NCBI GenBank assembly: GCA_012840385.1
Contig: DULK01000038.1
Location: forward strand, 1 to 35,034
Length of the DNA stretch: 35,034 nt
Reading direction: 5' to 3'
Source: Syntrophomonadaceae bacterium
GTDB lineage: Bacteria > Bacillota > DSM-12270 > Thermacetogeniales > Thermacetogeniaceae
Position numbers and translations under genes: made by a program. The notes beneath the pieces were generated by a model, which saw only the letters and a program-made list of their open reading frames with translations, had not been told where the DNA came from and made no database searches. The stretch's first letter is position 1, and each line of letters opens with the position of its first letter. Positions 2,691-35,034 of this stretch are shown here, piece by piece.

Positions 2691-3091
2691 AAAAAGAAGG
2701 AATTGATGCTAAGGGTCAGTTGGATGTACCGGCGGATTCTTTGTATATTTCAGAAGTCGCTGTTCACCCTCTAGGCTTCTTGCTCTGGAGATGTCCTGGG
2801 TCACTTCTGGGGTTTTCCGTTGTTATCCCTTAAAGCCAGGTATTGAATGTAAATGAACCTTCCATTTAACTGCAGCCAGAATTCCGTCCTGTTTTGGGGC
2901 TGCCGTTCCTGTTCCTGCAGCCTGTGAAAGACTGCCCATCTGACACGAATAGTTGTTATAAAAAATTGCGGGAACAGGGGTTTGCGGGAGACTCATGAGG
3001 TAAAGTAACGGGCTGAATCCGGGACTGCCAAAACTTCTGGGACCCTTACTGATCCAGTTTTGAAAAGCTGATAGTTTTGTATAGAATAATT
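2691..3091. other. intergenic stretch without recognisable genes
   Basis: About 400 bases with no open frame of protein-like composition. A promoter for the following marR-type gene lies at its right end. I see no repeat or RNA motif that I can support. Confidence 0.4.
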
Positions 3092-3100
3092 TGATATAAT
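3092..3100 (+). promoter_or_regulatory. extended -10 promoter element of the marR-type gene
   Basis: TGATATAAT is a perfect TATAAT preceded by the extended -10 TG motif, 30 bases before the start codon. The -35 region at normal spacing is weak, as is common for extended -10 promoters. No clear MarR-type palindrome is visible beside it. Confidence 0.55.
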
Positions 3101-3129
3101 ACTAAATAAATCTTATAGGGGAGGTTCCG

Positions 3130-3576
3130 GTGAAACAGATCAGACAGGGGGAATTCCTGATCACAAAAATCCACCATGTTAAAGGTCGTATTATCTCAAA
3201 AAAACTGAAAGAGAACGATGTTGATGAGATAAATCCGGCGCAGGGCAGGATTTTGTTTTTTCTGTGGCAGAAAGACGGTGTTTCCATACAGGAGTTGTCA
3301 AAAAGAACTGCTCTGGAGAAGTCAACTCTTACCTGCATGCTTGACCGTTTGGAGGATGCTGGTTTTATCAGGCGTGTTCCCTGTAAGGTGGACCGGCGCA
3401 AGGTACTGATCCATGTGACCGGTAAAGACGAGAAGATGAGGCCCGTTTATGAGCGGGTGATTCGCGAGACGAACGATATCCTCTATCAGGGGTTTACCGA
3501 GCAGGAAATACAGGAATTTGAAAATTATCTGAACCGGGTTTTGAAAAATTTGTCGGAGTATGACGGTGACAGATAG
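3130..3576 (+). CDS. MarR-family transcriptional regulator
   Basis: The 148-residue protein has the MarR winged-helix layout: an N-terminal helix, DEINPAQGRILFFLW, the helix-turn-helix VSIQELSKRTALEKSTLTCMLDRLE with its recognition helix at about residues 62-75, then the wing RRVPCKVDRRKVLIHVT, and a long C-terminal dimer helix. The start is GTG at 3130 with AGGGGAGG just upstream. The gene for a MATE exporter follows after 35 bases, so this is probably the repressor of that exporter, released by a small molecule. The link to efflux is inferred from position. Confidence 0.85.
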   Translation: MKQIRQGEFLITKIHHVKGRIISKKLKENDVDEINPAQGRILFFLWQKDGVSIQELSKRTALEKSTLTCMLDRLEDAGFIRRVPCKVDRRKVLIHVTGKDEKMRPVYERVIRETNDILYQGFTEQEIQEFENYLNRVLKNLSEYDGDR

Positions 3577-3611
3577 AATTACTAGTCGGAAACTAATGAG
3601 GAGAAGGGAAA

Positions 3612-4994
3612 ATGGATCACTCAAAGCAGTTAGGTGAAGTAAAGGTTGCAAGACTTTTGTTGAAGTTCTCCATCCCCGCCATTATCGCCATGCTGGTCAA
3701 CGCCCTCTACAATGTTGTGGACAGGATTTTCGTAGGAAACAGCGTGGGCCCCCTGGGCATTGCAGGCATAACCATCGGATTCCCGATCATGCTGATCATG
3801 ATGGCCTTCGGGATGCTGATCGGATTGGGCGCCAACTCCCTGGTATCGATAAAGCTCGGCGAAGGGAGGAAGGACGAGGCGGAGCTCATACTGGGAAATG
3901 CAATGCTGCTGCTGATAATAGTGGCTCTGTTACAGTCGGCGGCAGGACTGGCCTTGCTGAATCCTCTGCTGAAGATCTTTGGGGCAAGCGGTGAGGTGCT
4001 TCCTTACGCCAGGGCCTACATGCAGATCATCCTGCTGGGAGCGATCTTTCAAAGCCTGGGCTTCGGCATGAACAACTTTATCCGGGGGGAAGGCAACCCC
4101 AGGGTTGCCATGCTTACGATGCTGATCGGGGCCGCCTTGAACGCCATGCTTTGCCCTCTGTTTATTTTCGGGCTGGGAATGGGAATAAGGGGCTCTGCCC
4201 TTGCCACGGTTATTTCACAAGGGGTATCGGCCGCCTGGGTTCTCCGTTATTTCTTCTCCGGCCAGAGCACCCTGAAAATAAGAAAGAAAAACCTTGTGCT
4301 GCAGAAAAGGGTAGTGGGCAGCATATTAGCCCTTGGCAGCGCTCCCTTTGCGCTGCAAATGGCTGCAAGCCTTGTGAACACGGTGATGAACAAGAGCCTC
4401 GGTTTCTACGGTGGGGATCTTGCCATCTCGGGGATGGGTATAGTGATGAGCGTGCTCAACCTTGCGATGATGCCGGTGATCGGGATCAACCAGGGTGTGC
4501 AGCCCATTATCGGCTACAATTACGGGGCGAAGAAATACGACCGCGTTAAGGAGGCGCTTAAACTTGCGATTACCGGCGCCACCGCCATTGTCTGCCTGGG
4601 GTTTGTCCTCGTTCAGGTTTTTCCCAGGCAGATCGTCGGCCTGTTCAACAGCAGCGACCCGGAGTTGCTGAAGCTGGGGGTTTATTTCCTGCGCAGTTTC
4701 TTAATATTCCTGCCTTTGGTCGGTTTTCAGATCGTCAGTTCCGGTTACTTCCAGGCCGTGGGAAAGCCCAAGCAGTCCGCCTTCCTTACTCTGTCTAGGC
4801 AGCTTATCCTTCTGGTTCCGGCGATCTTGATCTTGCCTCTGTTCTTTAAACTGCACGGGGTGGTCATGGCCGGCCCGGTAGCCGACTTGGGTTCTTCAAT
4901 GCTTACAGGCTTCTGGATTACGAGAGAAATCAGGCGCCTCGGTTCGAACGGTCAGCCTGTTTACGTGTTAAACAAGGCGGAATTGACGGACTAA
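3612..4994 (+). CDS. MATE-family multidrug/Na+ or H+ antiporter
   Basis: This 460-residue protein has about 12 hydrophobic segments and the marks of the MATE family, MepA-like branch: FSIPAIIAMLVNALYNVVDRIFVG near the N-terminus, the matching second-half repeat SAPFALQMAASLVNTVMNKSL, and the GINQGVQPIIGYNYGAKKYDRV block after the middle. MATE proteins export cationic drugs and other organic compounds across the cytoplasmic membrane using an ion gradient. Length is normal. The ATG at 3612 has GAGGAGAAGGG upstream. It forms a two-gene unit with the MarR regulator before it and ends at a likely terminator. The substrate cannot be told from sequence. Confidence 0.9.
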   Translation: MDHSKQLGEVKVARLLLKFSIPAIIAMLVNALYNVVDRIFVGNSVGPLGIAGITIGFPIMLIMMAFGMLIGLGANSLVSIKLGEGRKDEAELILGNAMLLLIIVALLQSAAGLALLNPLLKIFGASGEVLPYARAYMQIILLGAIFQSLGFGMNNFIRGEGNPRVAMLTMLIGAALNAMLCPLFIFGLGMGIRGSALATVISQGVSAAWVLRYFFSGQSTLKIRKKNLVLQKRVVGSILALGSAPFALQMAASLVNTVMNKSLGFYGGDLAISGMGIVMSVLNLAMMPVIGINQGVQPIIGYNYGAKKYDRVKEALKLAITGATAIVCLGFVLVQVFPRQIVGLFNSSDPELLKLGVYFLRSFLIFLPLVGFQIVSSGYFQAVGKPKQSAFLTLSRQLILLVPAILILPLFFKLHGVVMAGPVADLGSSMLTGFWITREIRRLGSNGQPVYVLNKAELTD

Positions 4995-19112: not shown

Positions 19113-19667
19113 ATGGCCAAAAAACTAAATCACCGTTGGGAAAAGGGAATGTGTGTACCGGACGCCGCAGGTGGCTCCTTCGAGGAGGTCTACCGGGATT
19201 GCTACGGGCAGGTTGTCGGGCGGCTCGTTTACCTGCTTGGCGACCGGGCGGCGGCGGAGGATGTTGCCCAGGAAGCCTTTTTAAGACTGTATACCGTACC
19301 GCCTCCTACGAGGGAGAACCTGCTCGGGTGGCTGTACCGGGTGGGGGCGCGCCTGGCCATGAACTACCTGCGTGGCGAGAGCCGCAGGAGAAAGCGGGAG
19401 AAGCAGGTGTGGGACTCCCGGATAGGGGATGTGATCCCGCTGGAGGAGGTCATGTGGAGGCAGGAAACGGTCCGGGCAGTCAGGGAAGTTCTGCTCGAGC
19501 TGCCGGACCGGGACCGGATCGCCCTTTTGCTGCGCCATACCGGGTTTTCTTACCGGGAAATCGCACAGGTTATAGATGTAGCGCCGGCTTCGGTGGGTAA
19601 CATCCTGGCCCGGGCCCAGCGGAGTTTTCTGGAGAAATATAAAAAGCGTAAGGGGGATGAAAGCTGA
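19113..19667 (+). CDS. ECF RNA polymerase sigma factor
   Basis: The 184-residue protein has sigma region 2 (YGQVVGRLVYLLGDRAAAEDVAQEAFLRLY) and region 4 (LPDRDRIALLLRHTGFSYREIAQVIDVAPASVGNILARAQRSF), with a short linker and no region 3. It is a group IV (ECF) sigma factor that directs RNA polymerase to a small regulon upon an envelope signal. GGGAGCGGA precedes ATG 19113. The anti-sigma gene begins within the stop codon (TGATG), so the pair is coupled. The regulon may include the neighbouring lipoprotein and the damaged ABC transporter, which is inferred from position. Confidence 0.9.
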   Translation: MAKKLNHRWEKGMCVPDAAGGSFEEVYRDCYGQVVGRLVYLLGDRAAAEDVAQEAFLRLYTVPPPTRENLLGWLYRVGARLAMNYLRGESRRRKREKQVWDSRIGDVIPLEEVMWRQETVRAVREVLLELPDRDRIALLLRHTGFSYREIAQVIDVAPASVGNILARAQRSFLEKYKKRKGDES

Positions 19668-20803
19668 TGTGCTGCGATGAAGGAAAGTTGATGGCATACC
19701 TGGACCGTCAGCTGGCCCCCCGGGAGATGGAGCAGGTGAGCTTGCATATCTCCCGTTGCCCGGCCTGCCGGGCAAGGCTCGACCGTTTGCGCCGGGAAAA
19801 GGATGCCACAGGAAGACTCCTGGAGGCATACCGGGTGGCGGCGGAGGGCGGTCTCCAGAAGCCGGTGGCAGGCAGGATGCCTGCCGGATCGACCGGCTCC
19901 ACTAATTTAACTGTAAGGCGGAAAGGAGTGCACTTTGTTATGAAGCGTTACCGGAAAGCGTTAGCTGCCGTGGCTGCGGCGGCGCTGTTGATAGGGATGT
20001 TCAGTATCGCTCCCGTAAGGGGCTTTGCTTCACAGATCTTGCAGGTGTTCCGGGTGAACAGGGTACAGGTCCTGCACTTTGATCCGGCCGACGTGCAGGA
20101 GTTGGAGAAGGCCCTGGAGACCTACGGCAAAGGAGTTAATATCGACAGCTTCGGAGAGGTCCTCCGGGAAGAGGTCAACGACTATGCCCGGCTGGACCCG
20201 AATTCGGTAAGAATAGGGAGCCAGAGGATCGGCCTGCCGGAGCGGCTGGGTTCCTTTGAAGCCACCTCCGAACTCGGCATCCGGTCCGGCGAAAAATTGT
20301 CTATAACTCCCCGGGTGGAAGGCCTCAACGGGTTCCTGGCAAACATGGGAAGCCAAAAACTCCTGCCGCGTGCGCTGGACGGGAAAACCTTTAGCATCCG
20401 GATCTATCCGGTGGCAGTGAGGTCTTACGGGTCCGGCGGCAGCGAGCGGATCTCCATGTACCGGTCGGTTTCACCGGAACTGAGGGTGCCAGACGGGGTC
20501 AACGTGGAAGAGGTCCGGGAAGCCCTTTTGGGAATTCCCATTCTGCCTGAACGGATGCGGAACACCCTGGCAGGCATCGATCCCTACGGGAATACCCTGT
20601 TGATCCCCGATTTCGGTATGGAGAGGAACGGTCCCCTGCGGGAAGTGAAAGTGAACGGAAACGACGGCGTGTTCATGGAAGGTCCGCCGGATGCCTATCC
20701 GGCCCACAGGGTATTGATCTGGCCGCAGGGCGGGGTCTGGAACGCACTGGAAGGAAGCTTCACCCTTGACCAGGCCCTGGAACTGGCCGGGTACGTGAAA
20801 TAG
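19667..20803 (+). CDS. transmembrane anti-sigma factor with zinc-finger domain
   Basis: Residues 1-60 form a zinc anti-sigma domain (ZAS): CDEGKLMAYLDRQL, then H-ISRC-PAC-RARL with the H-x3-C-x2-C motif at about residues 27-34. One transmembrane helix lies near residues 100-120 (ALAAVAAAALLIGMFSIAP). The outer part of about 250 residues is a large domain that I cannot assign to a family. It should hold the sigma factor before it at the membrane and release it when the outer domain senses a signal. The 378-residue length is long for the group because of the outer domain. Confidence 0.8.
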   Translation: MCCDEGKLMAYLDRQLAPREMEQVSLHISRCPACRARLDRLRREKDATGRLLEAYRVAAEGGLQKPVAGRMPAGSTGSTNLTVRRKGVHFVMKRYRKALAAVAAAALLIGMFSIAPVRGFASQILQVFRVNRVQVLHFDPADVQELEKALETYGKGVNIDSFGEVLREEVNDYARLDPNSVRIGSQRIGLPERLGSFEATSELGIRSGEKLSITPRVEGLNGFLANMGSQKLLPRALDGKTFSIRIYPVAVRSYGSGGSERISMYRSVSPELRVPDGVNVEEVREALLGIPILPERMRNTLAGIDPYGNTLLIPDFGMERNGPLREVKVNGNDGVFMEGPPDAYPAHRVLIWPQGGVWNALEGSFTLDQALELAGYVK

Positions 20804-27219: not shown

Positions 27220-28338
27220 TCATGCCCCAAGAGCATCGAGCGCTCTGGTGGCTATGTTCAATGCCCCTACCCTGTCCGCGTCGGACTGGTAGCCGCATCC
27301 GGCGCATTTGAACCAGCCCTGGGTTTTGCGGTTGTACCGAGAAATATTCCCGCACTTTGGACAGGTCTTAGATGTTTCTTTGGGATCGACGTATATCACA
27401 GGCACTCCAGTGAGGGCCGCCTTGTATTCGATGAATGAGGCCAGTTCCCGGACGTTCCAACCAGACATCATCCGGTTGAACTTTTTTGAGCCTTTGGCCC
27501 GCTCACGGATACCTAGCAGGTTCTCCAGCGCAACGGCCGCGCTTTTGGCCTTCGCTATTTCAACGATGCGCTTAGAAAGGCAGTGGTTGATATAGCGCAT
27601 CCACCTGCGCTCGTGGCCTGCTTCTTTCTTGACACGGGAGAGCCTCCCTGCTTGCTGAAGCGCCCTGCGCCGGTCTGCCCAGCGTTCTTTCCGCCATCTA
27701 ATTTGGCGGCCGTCAAAGAACACGTTGTTGGACAGCACGGCCAATTTGACAATGCCGAAGTCGACCCCGATAATGCCGCCCGGCTCATTAAGACAAGTTT
27801 CGTAGACGAGGGATATGGTCACGTACCACTCGCCGCTTTTATCCTGCCATATCTCCATGGACCCCTGGCGGCAGGAACCTCCTACCAGATCACGGATTCT
27901 TTTGGCATGGTACGTGGAAGTGGCAAGTGGTACGGCTATCTGGCTTCTGCCGGAGGAGACAGGGAACTTAATAACCCACGTTCCGGAGGGAAGCTGGTAG
28001 AGAGAGTAGCAGTCCTGTCGCACCATTACCGGAACCGTTTTCTCAAATTTAGGCAGGCTGGCTTTTTTGCCCCTCAGCTTGCGGGAAAGATAGGAACGCC
28101 TGGCAGACAATGCTTTGAGCATGGCGCACTGGAGCGTACCCCGGTTGAGGTCAAATAACTCGCATGCTTGGCGGTAGGTTTCCCGGTTTAACTTTGCCCG
28201 GCTAGTGGTATTGAGTACTTCGGCCTGGGTTAGAAACCAGGAACATGCTTGGTGGTATGTTTCTAGCATTCGGGTTATCTTTTCCCGCTTGTTCTTGTTT
28301 GGAGATAAGAGCTTTGCTTTGAGAGTTACCACTTGCAT
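27220..28338 (-). CDS. tnpB: TnpB, RNA-guided RuvC-type nuclease of an IS200/IS605 element
   Basis: The 372-residue protein is full length. The RuvC catalytic residues are present: Asp in GVDFGIVKLA, Glu in ALENLLGI, Asp in DADRVGALNIA. A zinc finger CPKCG...CAGCG lies between the last two. The N-terminal half has the wedge/REC-like helices (MLETYHQACSWFLTQAEVLN). TnpB cuts DNA next to a short target motif using an RNA from the element's right end, which helps the element persist. GGAGGAG lies 7 bases before ATG 28338. No frameshift or missing catalytic residue is seen, so it may be active. Confidence 0.9.
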   Translation of the reverse strand: MQVVTLKAKLLSPNKNKREKITRMLETYHQACSWFLTQAEVLNTTSRAKLNRETYRQACELFDLNRGTLQCAMLKALSARRSYLSRKLRGKKASLPKFEKTVPVMVRQDCYSLYQLPSGTWVIKFPVSSGRSQIAVPLATSTYHAKRIRDLVGGSCRQGSMEIWQDKSGEWYVTISLVYETCLNEPGGIIGVDFGIVKLAVLSNNVFFDGRQIRWRKERWADRRRALQQAGRLSRVKKEAGHERRWMRYINHCLSKRIVEIAKAKSAAVALENLLGIRERAKGSKKFNRMMSGWNVRELASFIEYKAALTGVPVIYVDPKETSKTCPKCGNISRYNRKTQGWFKCAGCGYQSDADRVGALNIATRALDALGA

Positions 28339-29029: not shown

Positions 29030-29512
29030 TTAGAGCAACCCCCATTCAACGATCCATTTGAGGCCGAGGGCGATCCAGTGAGATGTAGTGTGAGCGAAAC
29101 GGAGATTCCAGCGCAAGAAGTTATATGTCTGGTCGTAGATGGTTTGATACGCTAACTCCTCCCACGTAAGCAACCTCTCAAGGAAAACAGCAATCTTACC
29201 TGCGTTGTTTTTGAGCACAGTGAGGTAGCGGCCAGGAATATAATCACGTAGCTCACTGATAACCGTGTCAACGTTATGGCGCAGGTAATAAACCAGCTTA
29301 CGGATGGCCGCCTTGATCGCCGCCGTCTTGACACCCTGAGCTTCTACCCGACCATCTTGCCCTGGCGCTGGCTGGACGCTAATTCCTTTTCCAGCAGGAA
29401 CTACGATATTATTGTTTGCTTCAGCAGCAAGCGCACTCATGCCTGGTAACAGCATGTTTACTAATAGGACGAGCACGAGCAAAAGGCTCAATTTTTTCTT
29501 AACCGATCTCAT
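29030..29512 (-). CDS. exported protein of unknown function
   Basis: This 160-residue protein has a clear signal peptide: basic start MRSVKKK, hydrophobic core LLLVLVLLVNMLL, and a cleavage site near ALAAEA (residue 31). The mature part is helical (AAIKAAIRKLVYYLRHNVDTVISELRDYI; LTWEELAYQTIYDQTYNFL) with many aromatic residues near the end. No cysteines or catalytic motif are seen. It is the first gene of a two-gene unit. A decayed partial copy lies 300 bases downstream, so the gene has been duplicated. Function unknown; a small secreted toxin-like or signalling protein is a speculation. Confidence 0.6.
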   Translation of the reverse strand: MRSVKKKLSLLLVLVLLVNMLLPGMSALAAEANNNIVVPAGKGISVQPAPGQDGRVEAQGVKTAAIKAAIRKLVYYLRHNVDTVISELRDYIPGRYLTVLKNNAGKIAVFLERLLTWEELAYQTIYDQTYNFLRWNLRFAHTTSHWIALGLKWIVEWGLL

Positions 29513-29826
29513 CTGAATACCTCCCGAATATTTTTAAGTTGCCTGCCAAGTTACTATCATTAATGGGGATCTTATTATTAAGGGGGATATCGGGATTGAA
29601 AAAGTATAATTCTTCGCCTCCTTGCCTGCATTCCGGCACGCGCTTATTCAAACAGCGCGTCAGATACACCGCGCTTCCTTTGTTCTCCGAAATCCTTCCA
29701 GCTTCGACTTCCTTTACTGATTTCTTTGATCGCTATGGCCACAAGTAGTGATACCGCCGCCGACGAGATTGACGGTTAAATGAAAGAAAGAGACAACCGC
29801 TATAATTTCTGGTTTTGTACGTTACT
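29513..29826. other. intergenic stretch
   Basis: No gene is supported. An inverted repeat ACGCGC/GCGCGT lies at about 29638-29662. The area before 29560 should hold the promoter of the exported-protein gene on the minus strand, but I find no good -35/-10 pair. The block 29640-29745 is more GC-rich than its surroundings and may be a gene remnant. Confidence 0.3.
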
Positions 29827-30129
29827 TTAATGGAAGGCATATTCTGAAACAAATATTAAAAAAATTGAAAAAAAGAATAATACATAAAATAGGTGGGCAA
29901 TCGAGGGAACTTTTTTCCTAAGCAGAAGTCCAGAAGCTAATAACAGTATTGAGTTTATAATCGGGTATGGAGTAAATTCAATATTCGAAACTACTAACAA
30001 GAATAATCCCGCACCGCATGTAATCAATAATACGTGAGCTAACAACTTAAATCTATTTTTTACTAAATATCCTACTATACCTAGTAGAATAAAAACTACA
30101 ACGTATGCAATTGGATAAGGCGCTACCAT
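29827..30129 (-). CDS. small multi-pass membrane protein of unknown function
   Basis: About 100 residues with three to four hydrophobic helices (PIAYVVVFILLGIVGYLV, LLAHVLLITCGAGLFLLVV, PIINSILLLASGLLL, LFYVLFFFSIFLIFV). I do not recognise it. ATG 30129 is preferred because GAGGG lies 8 bases before it; an ATG at 30144 directly after the stop of the upstream gene is also possible. It is in one unit with the exported beta-rich protein before it and could serve in its export or immunity, by position only. The DNA is markedly AT-rich. Confidence 0.5.
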   Translation of the reverse strand: MVAPYPIAYVVVFILLGIVGYLVKNRFKLLAHVLLITCGAGLFLLVVSNIEFTPYPIINSILLLASGLLLRKKVPSIAHLFYVLFFFSIFLIFVSEYAFH

Positions 30130-30144
30130 AAACCACACCCTCAT

Positions 30145-30951
30145 TTAATTCCAACGCAGTTCTATTCCTGTATATGTTATTCCATTACCACCAGGTGCCG
30201 GTGCCCATTGACCCCAGATATCACCGTCACAAAATGCTGCGCTTGCCTGACAGGTAGAAAGACTGACAGAACAAGAAGACGCCACACCTATTCTTAATGC
30301 ATATCTATGTCCAGCTTGTAATGTAACTGTCAATGGCGCATTAATTGAACCTTGATAATTAAGCTGGGATCCTGTACGAGTCCTCTCAAATACAGTATTA
30401 CCACCAATATCAGAGCTTGTATTAAGATCTTCGACTGAAACTCTTACCCTAGCTGATGCTTCACCATTACTATTTGTTGTTACAAGTGAACCTTTATAAC
30501 TCCCTTTAAAAGTTATTGTAGCACTTCTTGAACCGCTACCAGAAATGTAAATTTCGTTACCTATCCAAGCCCAACTACCAGCATTCCCTTGAATAAAACC
30601 AAGATACGTTCCAGCATCTGCCCAACCGGGCTCATTTGCAAATCCGAATCCCTCACCATAAGTACCATAACCGCTTCCCCAGTAATTTGAATTGCCGGCA
30701 TCTGCCCATGTGAAAGTTTTATTGGTTCCTATGTTAATTGTTGTACTATTTGGACTAATTTTTTCAACTCGAGTTCGAGAATCTTTGAAGAGGGATACAC
30801 CTGCTCTATTCATTTGTTCATCTAGTTGATCCAACACAGTTCGCGAATCCAAAACCTTACTATTTGCTTGTGCCGATGCTGGAATAGCATAGGTTAACAA
30901 CAATACCACGGTAAAGCTCAAGATACTTAATTTTTTTAAAATTACTTTCAT
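30145..30951 (-). CDS. exported beta-rich protein of unknown function
   Basis: A 268-residue protein with a signal peptide (MKVILKKLSILSFTVVLLLTYAIPASAQA, cleavage after about residue 28). The mature part is rich in Gly, Ser, Thr and Asn, with repeated short strands, suggesting a beta-sandwich or jelly-roll. It contains three cysteines close together (SSCSVSLSTCQASAAFCDGD), perhaps one disulfide plus a free cysteine. ATG 30951 has GGAGGGTTT upstream; the frame is open to 30996. It is divergent from an ECF sigma gene 460 bases away, with the structured element between them. Confidence 0.65.
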   Translation of the reverse strand: MKVILKKLSILSFTVVLLLTYAIPASAQANSKVLDSRTVLDQLDEQMNRAGVSLFKDSRTRVEKISPNSTTINIGTNKTFTWADAGNSNYWGSGYGTYGEGFGFANEPGWADAGTYLGFIQGNAGSWAWIGNEIYISGSGSRSATITFKGSYKGSLVTTNSNGEASARVRVSVEDLNTSSDIGGNTVFERTRTGSQLNYQGSINAPLTVTLQAGHRYALRIGVASSCSVSLSTCQASAAFCDGDIWGQWAPAPGGNGITYTGIELRWN

Positions 30952-31410
30952 TTGAATAAACCCTCCTCGTTGAGATTGCTTACGTAACATATTCATAGAA
31001 TTTCATAGAATTGTCCAGGGGTCTTCCCTGGCTAAATCAAAAGAGAATCAAGATATAGCATTCCTCCTCTCGGCCTTCCTTTACAAAGGGCAAATTTCAG
31101 GCTTAAAAAATGCTTGCACCTTTGCCTGCAAAGGAAGGGTACTCGCCCCCGGTGAATGATTGGTTGAACGGTCTACCGATCCACCAGAGGCTATTTTTAC
31201 GTTCCAGCAATTGAACGGCAGAATAATTCATCTCTCATATATATAGACAATTTAGAAGGCCATTTTACTGCACGCAGTAGAAAAAATTTTTAACGGAGAT
31301 GAAAGATGGTAAATACGGAAGGAATTAGCACGTATCTATAGAATATTTGATCAATTCGAGCTTGAGTCCCATGTCCTCATCGCAAGTTGATGATAAAGAA
31401 GGGTTAAACA
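30952..31410. other. divergent regulatory region between exported protein and ECF sigma genes
   Basis: This 459-base region has a 6-bp hairpin CCAGGG-GTCTT-CCCTGG (31015-31031), a tandem TTCATAGAAT repeat (about 30993-31012), the structured element copy B (31074-31180) and an AT-rich stretch before the sigma gene. It must carry promoters in both directions; no ECF-type -35 (GGAAC) at proper spacing is clear. Confidence 0.45.
31074..31180 (+). ncRNA. candidate structured cis-regulatory RNA, copy B (before an ECF sigma gene)
   Basis: Paired regions match copy A in order: CCTTCCTTT 31074-31082 with AAAGGAAGG 31130-31138 (perfect 9 bp); GGCAAA 31089-31094 with TTTGCC 31121-31126; CAGGC 31098-31102 with GCTTG 31112-31116; GGTA 31138-31141 with TACC 31174-31177; CCG 31149-31151 with CGG 31169-31171. 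Conserved blocks CACCTTTGCCTGCA (31117-31130), AAGGGTA, CGGTGA (31150-31155) and GGTTGA (31162-31167) recur. The inner hairpin has a wholly different sequence from copy A yet is still paired, which supports RNA structure. It ends 230 bases before the sigma start. Family unknown. Confidence 0.55.
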
Positions 31411-31929
31411 ATGGCAAATTTAGATCAGAGAAAGGTTTACGAGGAGTACTACATGAAGATATATACATTAGCTTATTACATAACAAGAGATGAAGAGATG
31501 TCCAAGGACATAACCCAGGACACCTTTTTCACTGCATTCAAAAAAATCCACCAATTAAAATCAGAAGAAAAGATTGAATCGTGGTTAATCTCCATTGCCA
31601 CCAACCTTTCTCGGAACGCCCTGAAAAAAAGAGAATATCGATTGAGCGAGTATCAGCCGGAATTAAAGGAAAGAGGTAACCCCTACGATCAAGTGGAATT
31701 AAAAATGGCCGTAACCGATGCTCTCGATTCACTATCTCCCGCGTATAAAGAGACCATCCTGCTTTACTATTATTATGGGTTTTCGATAAATGAAATTTCA
31801 CAAATACTTGATGTGAATCAAAAAACCGTAAGCTCTCGTCTCAGTCGTGCCCGCCGGTTGATCAGAGAAAAAATCGGGCTGGAACAAAAAGGGGAAGGAG
31901 GAACGAGGGTTGTCAGATCCCTGCCTTGA
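31411..31929 (+). CDS. ECF RNA polymerase sigma factor
   Basis: The 172-residue protein has region 2 (YMKIYTLAYYITRDEEMSKDITQDTFFTAFKKIHQL, then IESWLISIATNLSRN) and region 4 (LSPAYKETILLYYYYGFSINEISQILDVNQKTVSSRLSRARRLIREKI). It belongs to the SigW/SigV-like ECF type. GAAGGG lies 8 bases before ATG 31411. The anti-sigma start overlaps its 3' end by 20 bases. The likely regulon includes its own operon and perhaps the divergent exported protein; this is inferred. Confidence 0.9.
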   Translation: MANLDQRKVYEEYYMKIYTLAYYITRDEEMSKDITQDTFFTAFKKIHQLKSEEKIESWLISIATNLSRNALKKREYRLSEYQPELKERGNPYDQVELKMAVTDALDSLSPAYKETILLYYYYGFSINEISQILDVNQKTVSSRLSRARRLIREKIGLEQKGEGGTRVVRSLP

Positions 31930-32671
31930 TAAACTTATAAAGGAAGCCGTTACAGAACAGATAAAATCTTTCCCGGTACCCGACATGGACGAGGAGTGGG
32001 AATTATTACAAAAGAGGATTTATACAGAAAAGAAAAGAGAAGCCTGGATAAAAAGAGCAGCAATAGCTGCGGCTGTGTTTCTTGGTTTGACCGGGATTCT
32101 AGCAGGGGTGTATCCGGTGCAGGCGGGGAATCTCAAAAATGCTGTAATCCGTCTGATCGACAAAAGAATCCTCGGTCCGATGCACAACCTGGTCATTAAT
32201 ACCGGTGCAAGCGATCGTGGTGACGTACCGCCGGACACGGTGAATATACCAAAACCCCTGAGGACCTCCTCCCTGGAAAAGGCGGTCGAATTTGCCGGAA
32301 GACCTTTCTGGATCCCGGCGGAAACACCGGAGGGATTGGAACTGGATGAAATAGAAGTTACAAAGGAGGAGGGGGGAGTTTTAAGCGTAAGGCTATTATA
32401 CAGGCACAACGAAAAGTATTATTCGATAATGGAGACTTTAATTGAAAAAAGAGGGAGCAAAGGCATTCTTTACGATACCGACGACTCGGAAGTTTCCAAG
32501 ATAAAAATCGGACAGAGTGATGCGGTGCTGATTATCAACAACAAGCACGGTACCTACAACCTGGACTGGTATCTGGGAGACTGGAGTTTCAGCGCTTTCA
32601 GTAATTTGGGTGAAAAAGAAATAATAACGATTTCCTCCAGTCTGATACCCACAAATGCGGTCGGAAAATAA
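31910..32671 (+). CDS. transmembrane anti-sigma factor, DUF4367-type outer domain
   Basis: The 253-residue protein begins with a cytoplasmic helical part (residues 1-45, LDKLIKEAVTEQIKSF...EEWELLQKRIY), a transmembrane helix (about 50-70, AAIAAAVFLGLTGILAGVYPVQA) and an outer domain with the DUF4367 pattern (FWIPAETPEGLELDEIEV; GQSDAVLII). It lacks the H-C-C zinc motif. It should bind and restrain the sigma factor that precedes it. TTG 31910 is preceded by GGAGG and lies within the sigma gene. Confidence 0.75.
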   Translation: MSDPCLDKLIKEAVTEQIKSFPVPDMDEEWELLQKRIYTEKKREAWIKRAAIAAAVFLGLTGILAGVYPVQAGNLKNAVIRLIDKRILGPMHNLVINTGASDRGDVPPDTVNIPKPLRTSSLEKAVEFAGRPFWIPAETPEGLELDEIEVTKEEGGVLSVRLLYRHNEKYYSIMETLIEKRGSKGILYDTDDSEVSKIKIGQSDAVLIINNKHGTYNLDWYLGDWSFSAFSNLGEKEIITISSSLIPTNAVGK

Positions 32672-32690
32672 ACGACAGGTGATAAGACTT

Positions 32691-33096
32691 TTAAAAATAA
32701 AGCGAGGCGGAGGTTGAATAGCCTGATTCGGTATGGCTTCCTTCTATGGCGGAGTGCTTTGCGCGAACCCTGTAATAATATCCCTTGGTAACCGACGTGG
32801 TCACCTGACCGGTCGCTTCGGAACTGTTCGTTTCGGTAAATTCCCAGCTTTTGACCGCTGTCCAGTTGCTTCCGTTCCATCTTTCTAAAGTTAGTATCAC
32901 TTTCACGACATCCACGGGGGTATAAGTATATGTTACACCCGTAAGGTATGCACGGCCGTCGGTTGTGGCGCTGATGCTGCAATTTCCGTAAGTGATATAT
33001 TGATAGGTTTGTGGTTTAACATAGACGGCTTTATTTGTCGGCGGTGGTGCTGATGCAAAGACCGGAGACGCATAAGCCAGCACCATAATCACACTC
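32691..33096 (-). pseudogene. exported beta-sandwich protein, 5' end deleted
   Basis: The frame reads VSVIMVLAYASPVFASA, the end of a signal peptide, then a mature domain of about 115 residues (NKAVYVKPQTYQYI, VVKVILTLERWNGSNWTAVKSW, KGYYYRVRAKHSA) similar to small secreted beta-sandwich proteins of the DUF6147 type. The basic N-region and start codon are missing; upstream the frame runs into the antisense of the sigma gene (MPLARCL...). The join is at about 33096-33101. An internal ATG exists but would leave no proper signal peptide, so export is unlikely. Confidence 0.65.
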
Positions 33097-33100
33097 ACAC

Positions 33101-33562
33101 TATTATCTAACCAGAGACCAGCACGCTGCTGAAGACATCGTGCAAGAGGCATTTGCTAAAGCAATATGCGCCTTTCATAAATTAAAAGATCCCAATAAAT
33201 TCAAACCATGGCTTACCCGGATTGCTTTAAACACAGGGAAATCATGGGTAGAGAGAAATAGTCATGTATCCTATTTGGCTGAAATTGAAGTTGCGGCCAG
33301 TAGCTTTGACTTGCCGTTGGAAGAGGCAATAAACGCTGAGACCAGGAAGGTAGTCATAGATGCCATCAGCTACCTCTCCCCGCAGGAACAAAAAGTAGTT
33401 GTTCTTCGATTTTATCTCGATCTTTTGGAAAAGGATATTGCAAATATCCTGGGTATTAGTGAAGGTACAGTTAAATCTGTTCTTCACCGGTCAAAACAAA
33501 AACTGGGCCGACATTTAAGTATGTGGTACGAAAAGGAGCGTGATGGCCGTGGAAGAAGATAA
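33101..33562 (+). pseudogene. ECF sigma factor, 5' end deleted
   Basis: From 33101 the frame reads YYLTRDQHAAEDIVQEAFAK, the middle of sigma region 2, then the rest of region 2 (FKPWLTRIALNTGKSW) and a complete region 4 (LSPQEQKVVVLRFYLDLLEKDIANILGISEGTVKSVLHRSKQKL). The first 25-40 residues and the start are gone: a stop codon lies four codons before. A GTG at 33140 could start a shorter protein lacking the front of region 2, but it has no good ribosome binding site. The anti-sigma gene follows with an overlap of about 20 bases. Confidence 0.75.
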
Positions 33563-34256
33563 TCTGGAACAGTTCTTGCGCACCGCCTTACAGTCCAATG
33601 AGATTACTATTCAAACACCCATGAGCGGGGTTGAAAACAAGATATTTGAAAAGGTCGCCAAGTACCGGGAACAGGAGCACCGAAAAAAACGACGATTCTA
33701 TCAAATGGCAGCCGGGATTATCCTGTTGCTAGGGATGATCGGCAGTATGCTTTTTCCTCAACCGGTCGTTGCGTTGAAAAACAAGCTGCTTCATCTTTTA
33801 TCCTGGTCTGAGCGAGAAATCAAGATTAATTTGCTCAGCCTAACAGCCGGCAACCATGTAGATGACCGCTTGGCCAACGAAATATCCAAATTACAGCCCG
33901 AGGTTCCCTATAAGATTAAAGTTCCGCAATACATTCCCACCGGAATGGCCTTCAAACAGGTTGCGATCAATAAAAAAGGCTCAGTAGTCCGACTGGTTAT
34001 GGAGTACGAGCAAGCAGATAAACGCTTGCGAATTACCCAGGAAAACATACCTGGTGAAACAAACTATTCTTTAAGGGTCAACACCGCATCTGGGCAAATT
34101 GAACAAATTAAGATCAATAATGCGGAGGGGCATCTGATTAAATACAGCAATGGCATGAATATGATTGTATGGGATACTGACGAGAGTATTAAGTTTATTG
34201 TGGACGGGAATCTTACCGCTGATGAATTACTGTTAATTGCTAGGTGCTTGGAATAA
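33543..34256 (+). CDS. transmembrane anti-sigma factor, DUF4367-type
   Basis: About 237 residues: a cytoplasmic helical segment (DNLEQFLRTALQSNEITI...KIFEKVAKYREQEHRKK), one membrane helix (residues 55-74, MAAGIILLLGMIGSMLFPQPVV) and an outer domain matching DUF4367 (VPQYIPTGMAFKQVAI, LVMEYEQADKRLRITQE, IIVWDTD-like strands). ATG 33543 lies 4 bases after AAGGAG; GTG 33549 is a possible start. Its sigma partner has lost its 5' end, so the gene may be silent or orphaned. Confidence 0.7.
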   Translation: MAVEEDNLEQFLRTALQSNEITIQTPMSGVENKIFEKVAKYREQEHRKKRRFYQMAAGIILLLGMIGSMLFPQPVVALKNKLLHLLSWSEREIKINLLSLTAGNHVDDRLANEISKLQPEVPYKIKVPQYIPTGMAFKQVAINKKGSVVRLVMEYEQADKRLRITQENIPGETNYSLRVNTASGQIEQIKINNAEGHLIKYSNGMNMIVWDTDESIKFIVDGNLTADELLLIARCLE

Positions 34257-34261
34257 ATATG

Positions 34262-35034
34262 TAGGGTTTGCTGAATAACCAAAAGATCCAGACACTACAA
34301 GGGTTTAGAGGTATTAAAATCGAATTATTGTCCAAGGAAAAAGCGTAAAAACCGGCAAAAAGCTTGCACAGGAGGCAGAAATGTACCGACGTCCCACTGG
34401 TCAGATGGTTCTGGAAGACGTCGTACTTCCCTTTGAAGGAAAACTCGATGCCAATAACCGTTGGGTCAAACTGGCTCAGATAATACCCTGGTCGGACATC
34501 GAAAAGGATTATGCCGACCTATTCCCATCCAATACCGGAACAGTAGCCAAACCCTTACGCATGGCCCTGGGTGCCCTGATCATCAAAGAAAGGTGCGGAT
34601 TCACGGACCGGGAAACAGTGGAACAAATCACCGAAAACCCGTATCTGCAATACTTCATCGGGCTGGAAAAGTATCAGATAGAGCCTCCCTTTGACGCCTC
34701 ACTAATATGGTTTACTTCCGCAAACGCCTGGATCAGAACATCATGAACAAAATAAACGAGCTGATCTGTCAAGGGGAGCAAAACAAAAAGACAAAAGATC
34801 CGGGTGACCCCGGGGAACCCCCGCATACAGGTGGTGTTCTATCCAAACAGGACTCTAAATCGGATGAGCCGGCTAATAAAGGCAAACTGTTGCTTGATGC
34901 CACCTGTGCCCCGGCCGATATCCGCTACCCAAGATCTGTCCCTGCTGAATGAAGCCCGGGAGAAAACCGAAGAGATGATCGACACCTTATATCATACCGG
35001 TCTGGGCCTGGCAAGGAAGCCTCGCACCTATCGC
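34262..35034 (+). mobile_element. IS5/IS1182-type insertion sequence, left part, cut by window end
   Basis: Just after the anti-sigma gene the sequence AGGGTTTGCTGAATAACC has the look of the terminal inverted repeat of IS5/IS1182-type elements. A transposase frame follows at 34381. The right end lies beyond the window, so the boundary and target duplication cannot be checked. Confidence 0.65.
34381..35034 (+). pseudogene. DDE transposase of the IS5/IS1182 group, frameshifted and partial
   Basis: The N-terminal InsH-type domain is intact (LDANNRWVKLAQIIPWSDIE, SNTGTVAKPLRMALGALIIKER, DRETVEQITENPYLQYFIGL). At about 34709 two extra bases (AT in CTAATATGG) shift the frame; the true continuation VYFRKRLDQNIMNKINELI is in the next frame. 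At about 34931 a second shift restores the first frame, where LSLLNEAREKTEEMIDTLYHTGL follows to the window end. The conserved LLLDATCAPADIRYP block holds the first catalytic aspartate. With two shifts the gene is inactive unless these are sequencing errors. Confidence 0.75.

What the first reader, a model, noticed from the sequence alone, without database searches (positions are those of the whole stretch)
30145..34256. Repeated module: exported protein divergent from ECF sigma plus DUF4367 anti-sigma
Two adjacent loci follow the same plan: an exported beta-rich protein on the minus strand, then an ECF sigma and its membrane anti-sigma on the plus strand. The exported proteins differ in sequence. 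A sigma factor divergent from a secreted protein suggests that the secreted protein is a target or a ligand in an envelope-sensing or contact-dependent system. A third exported protein (29030-29512) and a duplicated remnant of it lie close by. This pattern does not match a system I can name.
Basis: partly seen in the sequence, partly recalled or inferred. Interest (0 to 1): 0.65.

Follow-up and report, generated by a model that had tools for sequence, protein, structure and literature searches.

The report
Sigma-factor module driving secreted beta-sandwich proteins
Many Firmicutes carry a small gene cassette in which a membrane-held sigma factor appears to switch on a secreted beta-sandwich protein and, in some lineages, a second, interchangeable secreted protein; this window holds one such cassette plus the broken remains of another.

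Summary
The genes are there, but the "repeated divergent module" is not. σ1 (31411-31929) and its DUF4367 anti-σ (31910-32671) are intact. The "second module" is a rearrangement junction near 33100: σ2 lacks its first ~20 residues and exp2 lacks the start of its signal peptide, with no intergenic DNA between them.

Exp2 is a DUF6147 protein, and its natural partner is anti-σ1, tail-to-tail. DUF6147-like genes are strongly linked to DUF4367 anti-σ genes: 48 of 77 lie within 2.5 kb across 299 genomes. In a set biased to exp2's relatives, 39 of 52 loci are tail-to-tail (Desulfotomaculum, Pelotomaculum, Paenibacillus, Cohnella).

DUF6147 genes carry a conserved ECF-type promoter (TGAACC-N16-CGTC, usually 53-69 nt upstream); σ genes do not. 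In Desulfotomaculia a second, back-to-back ECF promoter faces a divergent exported protein that is unrelated from locus to locus. Exp1 is homologous to that protein in one Syntrophomonadaceae locus (two copies).

Best reading: an envelope-responsive σ/anti-σ switch whose outputs are DUF6147 plus a variable exported cargo. The secreted proteins are targets. The window copy is partly decayed. I found no paper naming DUF4367 or DUF6147.

The parts
30145..30996 (-). exp1: exported 283-aa β-rich protein (a second in-frame start at 30951 gives a cleaner signal peptide). Homologue of the divergent 'cargo' proteins of L184.
   Evidence: No Pfam or NCBIfam family; phmmer to both L184 cargo proteins, 1e-15 and 9e-11; profile hits in 11 of 299 genomes
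30997..31410 (.). Intergenic region between exp1 and σ1. No significant match to the DUF6147-type ECF promoter on either strand; one weak candidate toward exp1 at 31165(-), AAC-N17-CGAG.
   Evidence: PWM p = 0.37 for exp1 and 0.98 for σ1
31411..31929 (+). σ1: intact ECF sigma factor, 172 aa, regions 2 and 4.
   Evidence: Pfam Sigma70_r2 4.4e-12, Sigma70_r4_2 1.9e-14; TIGR02937 9.4e-25
31910..32671 (+). anti1: membrane anti-σ. Cytosolic helices, one TM (~50-68), PVQA motif at the outer face, then a DUF4367 domain with an RseB/MucB-like predicted fold. Overlaps the σ1 stop by 20 bp.
   Evidence: DUF4367 2e-10; TM and VxA; AF2 pLDDT 84.5; Foldseek top hits RseB/MucB
32672..32690 (.). 19-nt convergent gap between anti1 and exp2. 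Most relatives have a bidirectional terminator hairpin here; it is absent in the window.
32691..33152 (-). exp2: DUF6147 exported β-sandwich protein, partner of σ1/anti1 tail-to-tail. The 5' end of the ORF (from about 33100 up to 33152) is antisense σ2 sequence, so the n-region and promoter are lost.
   Evidence: PF19644 1.8e-6, 28.6 bits; AF2 pLDDT 90.7 all-β; relatives
33095..33105 (.). Rearrangement (or misassembly) junction that truncates exp2 and σ2 at the same point; approximate.
33089..33562 (+). σ2 remnant: ECF sigma without its first ~20 residues (region 2.1 helix). No in-frame start before GTG 33140.
   Evidence: (Sigma70_r2 from profile position 14)
33540..34256 (+). anti2: intact DUF4367 membrane anti-σ; groups with the Syntrophomonadaceae module type (L181/L184/L196/L193).
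   Evidence: DUF4367 4.7e-17; tree support 98/93
29030..29512 (-). exp3: exported 160-aa protein. A homologue lies beside a DUF6147/DUF4367 module in L100.
   Evidence: phmmer 4.5e-8 to L100 2257-2502(-); L100 carries a DUF6147-like gene at 2921-3190 and an anti-σ at 3369-4376

Best explanation
The window contains one copy of a widespread Bacillota signalling cassette plus fragments of a second. In the cassette a membrane anti-σ with an outward DUF4367 sensor domain (predicted RseB/MucB-like fold) holds an ECF σ. An envelope signal, not identified here, probably triggers site-1 cleavage at a conserved signal-peptidase-like [AVTS]-x-A site just outside the membrane and then intramembrane proteolysis, which frees the σ. 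The σ then transcribes a small exported β-sandwich protein (DUF6147) from a TGAACC-N16-CGTC promoter. In Desulfotomaculia and at least one Syntrophomonadaceae genome it also transcribes a divergent exported 'cargo' protein that differs from locus to locus, from a back-to-back promoter. Exp2 is the DUF6147 of σ1/anti1; exp1 belongs to a cargo family; σ2 is broken. Shown by sequence statistics: the association, the promoters and their positions, the truncation, the variable neighbours. Inferred: that the neighbouring σ uses these promoters, the proteolysis, the signal, and every function of the exported proteins.
For: A genome-wide profile search found 77 DUF6147-like genes in 50 of 299 genomes. 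48 lie within 2.5 kb of a DUF4367 gene, and 45 of 50 carrier genomes have DUF4367 against 53 of 249 others (Fisher p 2e-20, not corrected for phylogeny). In genome contigs 39 of 52 loci are σ, anti-σ, convergent DUF6147. The promoter AAC-N17-CGT peaks only at spacer 17. With leave-one-out PWM scoring, 24 of 58 DUF6147 upstream regions exceed the 95% null (2.9 expected), 13 of 47 if training loci are left out; σ upstream regions give 5 of 41 (2.1 expected). Divergent back-to-back promoters occur in 10 Desulfotomaculia-type loci with mutually unrelated exported neighbours. Promoter similarity tracks σ similarity (Mantel r 0.67, p 0.0002). The site has the architecture of a biochemically mapped Firmicute ECF promoter, tGTTAC-N16-CGTC (PMC3397946). 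The RseB/MucB fold is; the near-invariant A (36 of 40) with small -3 residue is, and signal-peptidase site-1 cleavage of RsiV and RsiP is described in PMC8844934. The exp2-anti1 pairing rests.
Against: The window itself lacks the promoter: exp2's 5' region is gone, exp1 and σ1 upstream give no significant match, and no exact site remains in the own genome. About half of the DUF6147 loci score below threshold, so either their promoter variants differ or the σ does not control them. The Mantel test does not separate σ-promoter matching from shared descent. Exp1-family genes elsewhere mostly stand alone. RseB similarity is weak (E 0.01, TM 0.28 over the whole model). Anti1 is placed poorly in the tree (long branch).
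Confidence: 0.72

Rival explanations
1. One reading: each exported protein is a partner (ligand or target) of the σ it is divergent from, in a repeated two-gene-plus-one module.
For: Head-to-head DUF6147/σ loci exist elsewhere (8 of 48 linked genes, mostly a supported clade of their own). Intact examples carry an ECF promoter at about -53 to -64.
Against: Exp2 lacks the N-terminal insert of the main head-to-head clade and falls outside it. σ2 and exp2 are both truncated and share no intergenic DNA. No exp1-like gene was found beside a σ start.
Confidence: 0.08
2. DUF6147 is a feedback ligand: the secreted β-sandwich binds the DUF4367 domain and tunes the switch, as well as being its output.
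For: Obligate-looking neighbourhood in every orientation. Secreted protein and outward sensor domain meet in the same compartment. RseB, the closest fold, is itself a regulatory binding protein.
Against: No direct evidence: no shared interface or co-folding was computed. Conserved adjacency is also expected for a dedicated target.
Confidence: 0.2
3. The head-to-head contact at 33100 is an assembly error joining two cassettes, and the real genome has two intact modules.
For: The host is a 105-contig assembly. Both genes break at one point, in a stretch with repeated module types and a transposase at the contig end.
Against: The window also lacks the terminator found in relatives, which suits real decay. 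A repeat at the junction that would explain a misjoin was not specifically searched for.
Confidence: 0.25
4. Unrelated accessory genes gathered in a transposon-rich island; adjacency means nothing.
For: A TnpB-like gene at 27220-28338 and a DUF772 transposase at 34381 flank the region. The two same-genus genomes lack matches to exp1 and anti2.
Against: Linkage and co-occurrence statistics, plus a conserved promoter spanning Desulfotomaculia to Paenibacillaceae.
Confidence: 0.05

Closest known systems
σV/RsiV and σP/RsiP of Bacillus (ECF σ with a membrane anti-σ cleaved by signal peptidase at site 1)
   Same: σ/anti-σ operon with overlapping genes; single-TM anti-σ; small-x-A motif at the outer face (PMC8844934)
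   Different: Sensor domain is DUF4367, not DUF4179/DUF3298 or the RsiP type; outputs are DUF6147 and variable exported proteins rather than lysozyme or β-lactam resistance genes (the latter partly from general knowledge)
RseA-RseB / MucA-MucB envelope stress systems
   Same: DUF4367 model's best PDB matches are RseB/MucB; a LolA-like domain as sensor on an ECF anti-σ
   Different: Here the domain is fused to the anti-σ itself; no MucB_RseB Pfam match; Bacillota, not Proteobacteria
Tt-RpoE1/Tt-TolB of Thermoanaerobacter tengcongensis (PMC3397946)
   Same: Firmicute ECF σ with adjacent membrane anti-σ; promoter tGTTAC-N16-CGTC has the architecture found here
   Different: Anti-σ is a 645-aa TolB protein; the σ is autoregulated, whereas σ genes here lack the motif; neighbours are not DUF6147
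Pfam PF19644 (DUF6147) and PF14285 (DUF4367)
   Same: Exp2 and both anti-σ proteins exceed the curated cut-offs
   Different: Families of unknown function; no linkage or role described in any paper held

Membership tests
ECF sigma factor (σ1) | σ2 and σ4 domains only, complete | tested here: met
   Sigma70_r2 profile 2-68/71, Sigma70_r4_2 2-52/54
ECF sigma factor (σ2) | complete σ2 domain and a start codon | tested here: not met
   Region 2 from position 14; TAA upstream, first start at 33140
Membrane anti-σ with DUF4367 | gene directly after σ, cytosolic N-terminus, one TM, DUF4367 outside | tested here: met
   Both copies; helices then β domain in the model
Membrane anti-σ with DUF4367 | binds and inhibits the adjacent σ | not testable with these tools
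   Needs two-hybrid or in vitro transcription
DUF6147 (PF19644), exp2 | profile score above curated cut-off | tested here: met
   28.6 bits against 24
DUF6147 (PF19644), exp2 | intact Sec signal peptide as in relatives | tested here: not met
   n-region missing at the junction; a hydrophobic core with ASA remains
σ/DUF4367/DUF6147 cassette | three genes adjacent | tested here: met
   σ1-anti1-exp2 tail-to-tail, gap 19 nt
σ/DUF4367/DUF6147 cassette | ECF promoter usually 53-69 nt before DUF6147 | tested here: not met
   Upstream DNA replaced by the σ2 remnant
σ/DUF4367/DUF6147 cassette, cargo slot (exp1) | exported gene divergent from DUF6147 with a back-to-back ECF promoter | tested here: not met
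   Exp1 is divergent from σ1, and its upstream has no significant site; only its homologues in L184 occupy the slot
MucB/RseB family | Pfam MucB_RseB sequence match | tested here: not met
   No match for either anti-σ; fold resemblance only
RsiV/RsiP-type regulated proteolysis | signal-peptidase site at the outer end of the TM | tested here: inconclusive
   VQA in anti1 and VVA in anti2; A in 36 of 40 relatives with A/T/V/S at -3 in 34 of 36; cleavage untested

The most novel reading that the evidence does not exclude
A cassette with a 'cargo slot': the σ/anti-σ/DUF6147 core is conserved, while the divergent, co-regulated exported protein is swapped between lineages. That would resemble a polymorphic secreted-effector or surface-antigen locus run by an envelope-sensing ECF σ, with DUF6147 as the constant secreted partner of changing cargo.
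Probability: 0.3. Interest if true: 0.75.

Novelty: new variant of a known kind. Interest (0 to 1): 0.56.

Why it matters
It ties two Pfam families of unknown function (DUF4367, DUF6147) into one regulatory cassette found from Desulfotomaculum to Paenibacillus. It supplies a promoter consensus and predicts the direct output. The cassette occurs in cultivable Paenibacillus strains, so σ dependence, the inducing signal and the role of DUF6147 can be tested directly. If the cargo slot is real, the promoter offers a way to find unannotated secreted proteins in anaerobic Firmicutes.

Tried and rejected
(1) Convergent overlap as antisense ('excludon') control of the anti-σ: rejected. Most convergent gaps in relatives hold an inverted repeat usable as a bidirectional terminator.

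(2) Shared promoter of σ and DUF6147 (autoregulation): a blind pairwise test was null (own pairs 11.31 vs crossed 11.26 matches, p 0.39), and the ECF motif is not enriched before σ genes.

(3) The reverse-complement control of the promoter scan was nearly as high as the forward count (13 vs 15 of 47). It first looked like failure, but the later scans show divergent promoters of the neighbouring exported genes there.

(4) Negative feedback through an ECF site before the anti-σ: strong only in L172 (17.8), 5 of 33 overall against 1.7 expected; left open.

(5) Remaining regulon sites in the own genome: none above control. A loose pattern in four other genomes was no more frequent than its control in three of them.

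(6) Rfam elements in the region: none. Fold search for exp2: only generic β-sandwiches. Pfam on cargo proteins: nothing above cut-off. PDB sequence search for both profiles: nothing.

The narrower A2 was used, which biases that sample toward exp2's clade.
Full report
What is in the window. The window is a whole 35,034-bp contig (C22) of a 2.70-Mb, 105-contig Clostridia assembly. From 29,030 to 34,256 it carries exported ORF exp3 (-), a small membrane ORF (-), exported exp1 (-), σ1 and anti1 (+), exported exp2 (-), a σ fragment and anti2 (+). Pfam finds complete ECF domains in σ1, DUF4367 in both anti-σ proteins and DUF6147 in exp2; exp1 and exp3 match nothing.

The second module is a junction. 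σ2 matches the region-2 profile only from position 14. Upstream its frame reads SHSHYYLTRDQHAAEDIVQEAF after a TAA, and the first start codon, GTG 33140, lies directly before the conserved QEAF stretch. Against 20 intact relatives about 20 residues are missing. Exp2 should open with a charged n-region but instead runs into antisense σ2 sequence. The two genes therefore break at the same place, about 33,095-33,105. This is a deletion, an inversion or a misassembly; the tools cannot tell which.

The real unit. DUF6147 (Pfam model) was found in 7 of 299 genomes of the phylum, mostly beside DUF4367 and mostly tail-to-tail. A profile made from these proteins (A1) found 77 genes in 50 genomes. Of these, 48 lie within 2.5 kb of a DUF4367 match: 22 downstream on the same strand, 16 tail-to-tail, 8 head-to-head with the σ gene, 2 upstream on the same strand. 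45 of 50 carriers have DUF4367 against 53 of 249 non-carriers. The DUF4367 list was cut off at weak scores, so 48 is a lower bound. A scan of 84,980 species genomes with the narrower profile A2 gave 52 loci. 39 have σ, anti-σ and a convergent DUF6147 (in a few the σ is off the contig end or unmatched), in Desulfotomaculum, Desulfallas, Pelotomaculum, Syntrophomonas, Paenibacillus, Cohnella and Saccharibacillus. In 42 convergent loci, including the window, the gap has a median of 52 nt and in most relatives holds a hairpin usable as a terminator from both sides; the window's 19-nt gap has none.

Which σ owns exp2. The main head-to-head DUF6147 proteins form a supported clade (98/98) with an N-terminal insert that exp2 lacks. 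Exp2 is closest in identity to the tail-to-tail L164/L165 proteins (41%), and anti1's nearest rows by path are L168, L164 and L165, though anti1 sits on a long branch. Anti2 falls with support 98/93 among the Syntrophomonadaceae loci L181/L184/L196/L193, one of which (L184) carries two exp1 homologues (1e-15 and 9e-11), each divergent from a DUF6147 gene. So σ1/anti1/exp2 look like one cassette, and exp1 plus σ2/anti2 look like scattered parts of an L184-type cassette.

The promoter. Upstream of DUF6147 genes the pattern AAC-N17-CGT is enriched, and only at spacer 17; most sites lie about 57-69 nt before the ORF and read TGAACC-N16-CGTC or variants. A PWM scored leave-one-out passes the 95% null in 24 of 58 DUF6147 upstream regions (2.9 expected) and in 13 of 47 untrained ones. 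It passes in 5 of 41 σ upstream regions (2.1 expected). The architecture equals that of the mapped T. tengcongensis ECF promoter tGTTAC-N16-CGTC (PMC3397946). Variants follow clades (GGATCC, TCAACC, GGAACT forms), and promoter similarity tracks σ similarity (Mantel r 0.67, p 0.0002), although common descent could produce the same result. This supports DUF6147 as a σ target and gives no sign of autoregulation.

The cargo slot. In ten Desulfotomaculia-type loci a second ECF site faces the other way, in most of them about 44-50 nt from the first. Where the contig is long enough, an exported protein often follows, 150-330 nt downstream. These proteins (L164, L165, L172, L173, L176) show no similarity to one another at E 0.01 and no Pfam family. 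In L166, L168, L169 and L171 no exported ORF was found in the slot (some of these end at the contig edge), so the slot is not always seen filled. In L184 the exp1 homologues occupy it, and the two intergenic regions show TCAACC elements on both strands, read by eye. Exp1 in the window faces σ1 instead and has no significant site. Exp1-family genes elsewhere mostly have no σ or DUF6147 within 1.5 kb, so exp1's membership is a lead, not a finding.

Proteins. Exp2 is predicted with confidence (pLDDT 90.7) as a single all-β sandwich resembling many Ig-like domains and nothing specific. Anti1 is predicted (84.5) as N-terminal helices, a TM and a β domain whose five best PDB matches are all RseB or MucB; the similarity is weak (E 0.01) and Pfam does not support family membership. 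At the outer end of the TM an alanine is conserved in 36 of 40 relatives with A, T, V or S at -3 in 34 of 36, as at a signal-peptidase site; the window proteins read PVQA and PVVA. RsiV and RsiP are cut at such sites (PMC8844934).

Mechanism and limits. Shown: linkage, promoter statistics, truncation, variable neighbours. Inferred: that the adjacent σ reads these promoters, that release is by signal-peptidase and intramembrane cleavage, and that DUF4367 senses an envelope signal. Unknown: the signal and what DUF6147 and cargo do outside the cell. No paper in the held library names DUF4367, PF14285 or DUF6147; the large 2021 ECF reclassification paper was not held, so it may group these σ factors without my knowing.

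Verdict. A real, apparently undescribed cassette of a known kind, found through a window whose own copy is damaged.

Noticed in passing
window 19113-20803 (+): A further ECF σ and anti-σ pair; the anti-σ has a weak antisigma/antisigmaE NCBIfam match, not DUF4367. Unrelated to the finding.
   Followed up: no
window 27220-28338 (-) and 34381-34746 (+): A TnpB/OrfB-like transposase (by sequence reading only) and a DUF772 transposase fragment flank the region, so it is a transposon-rich stretch.
   Followed up: no
L012 3876-4850 (own genome C38): Another σ/DUF4367 pair whose downstream DUF6147 survives only as a 3' fragment (C38:61177-61347), a second decaying cassette in this genome.
   Followed up: partly
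L011 3196-5736 (own genome C32): Co-directional σ, anti-σ, DUF6147, then a further exported protein and a membrane protein: the same core as an operon.
   Followed up: partly
L172 2269-2297 (-): Strong ECF-type site (17.8) inside the 3' end of σ facing the anti-σ gene, which could give negative feedback; weaker ones in L168, L171, L181, L184.
   Followed up: partly
L164, L165, L172, L173, L176 between the divergent ECF site and the cargo ORF: Long untranslated leaders of 150-330 nt before cargo genes; may hide an RNA element or a short ORF.
   Followed up: no
L184 400-4600: Two tandem exp1-like/DUF6147 pairs with nearly identical intergenic regions, the second DUF6147 truncated: cassettes duplicate locally.
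   Followed up: partly
L171 (DQHR01000113.1): Contig labelled Bacteroidales but its DUF6147 and anti-σ sit inside the Pelotomaculum/Desulfotomaculia group; probably a binning error.
   Followed up: no
L100 2257-4376: Exp3 homologue beside a DUF6147-like gene and a DUF4367 anti-σ, hinting that exp3 is also a cassette-associated exported protein.
   Followed up: partly
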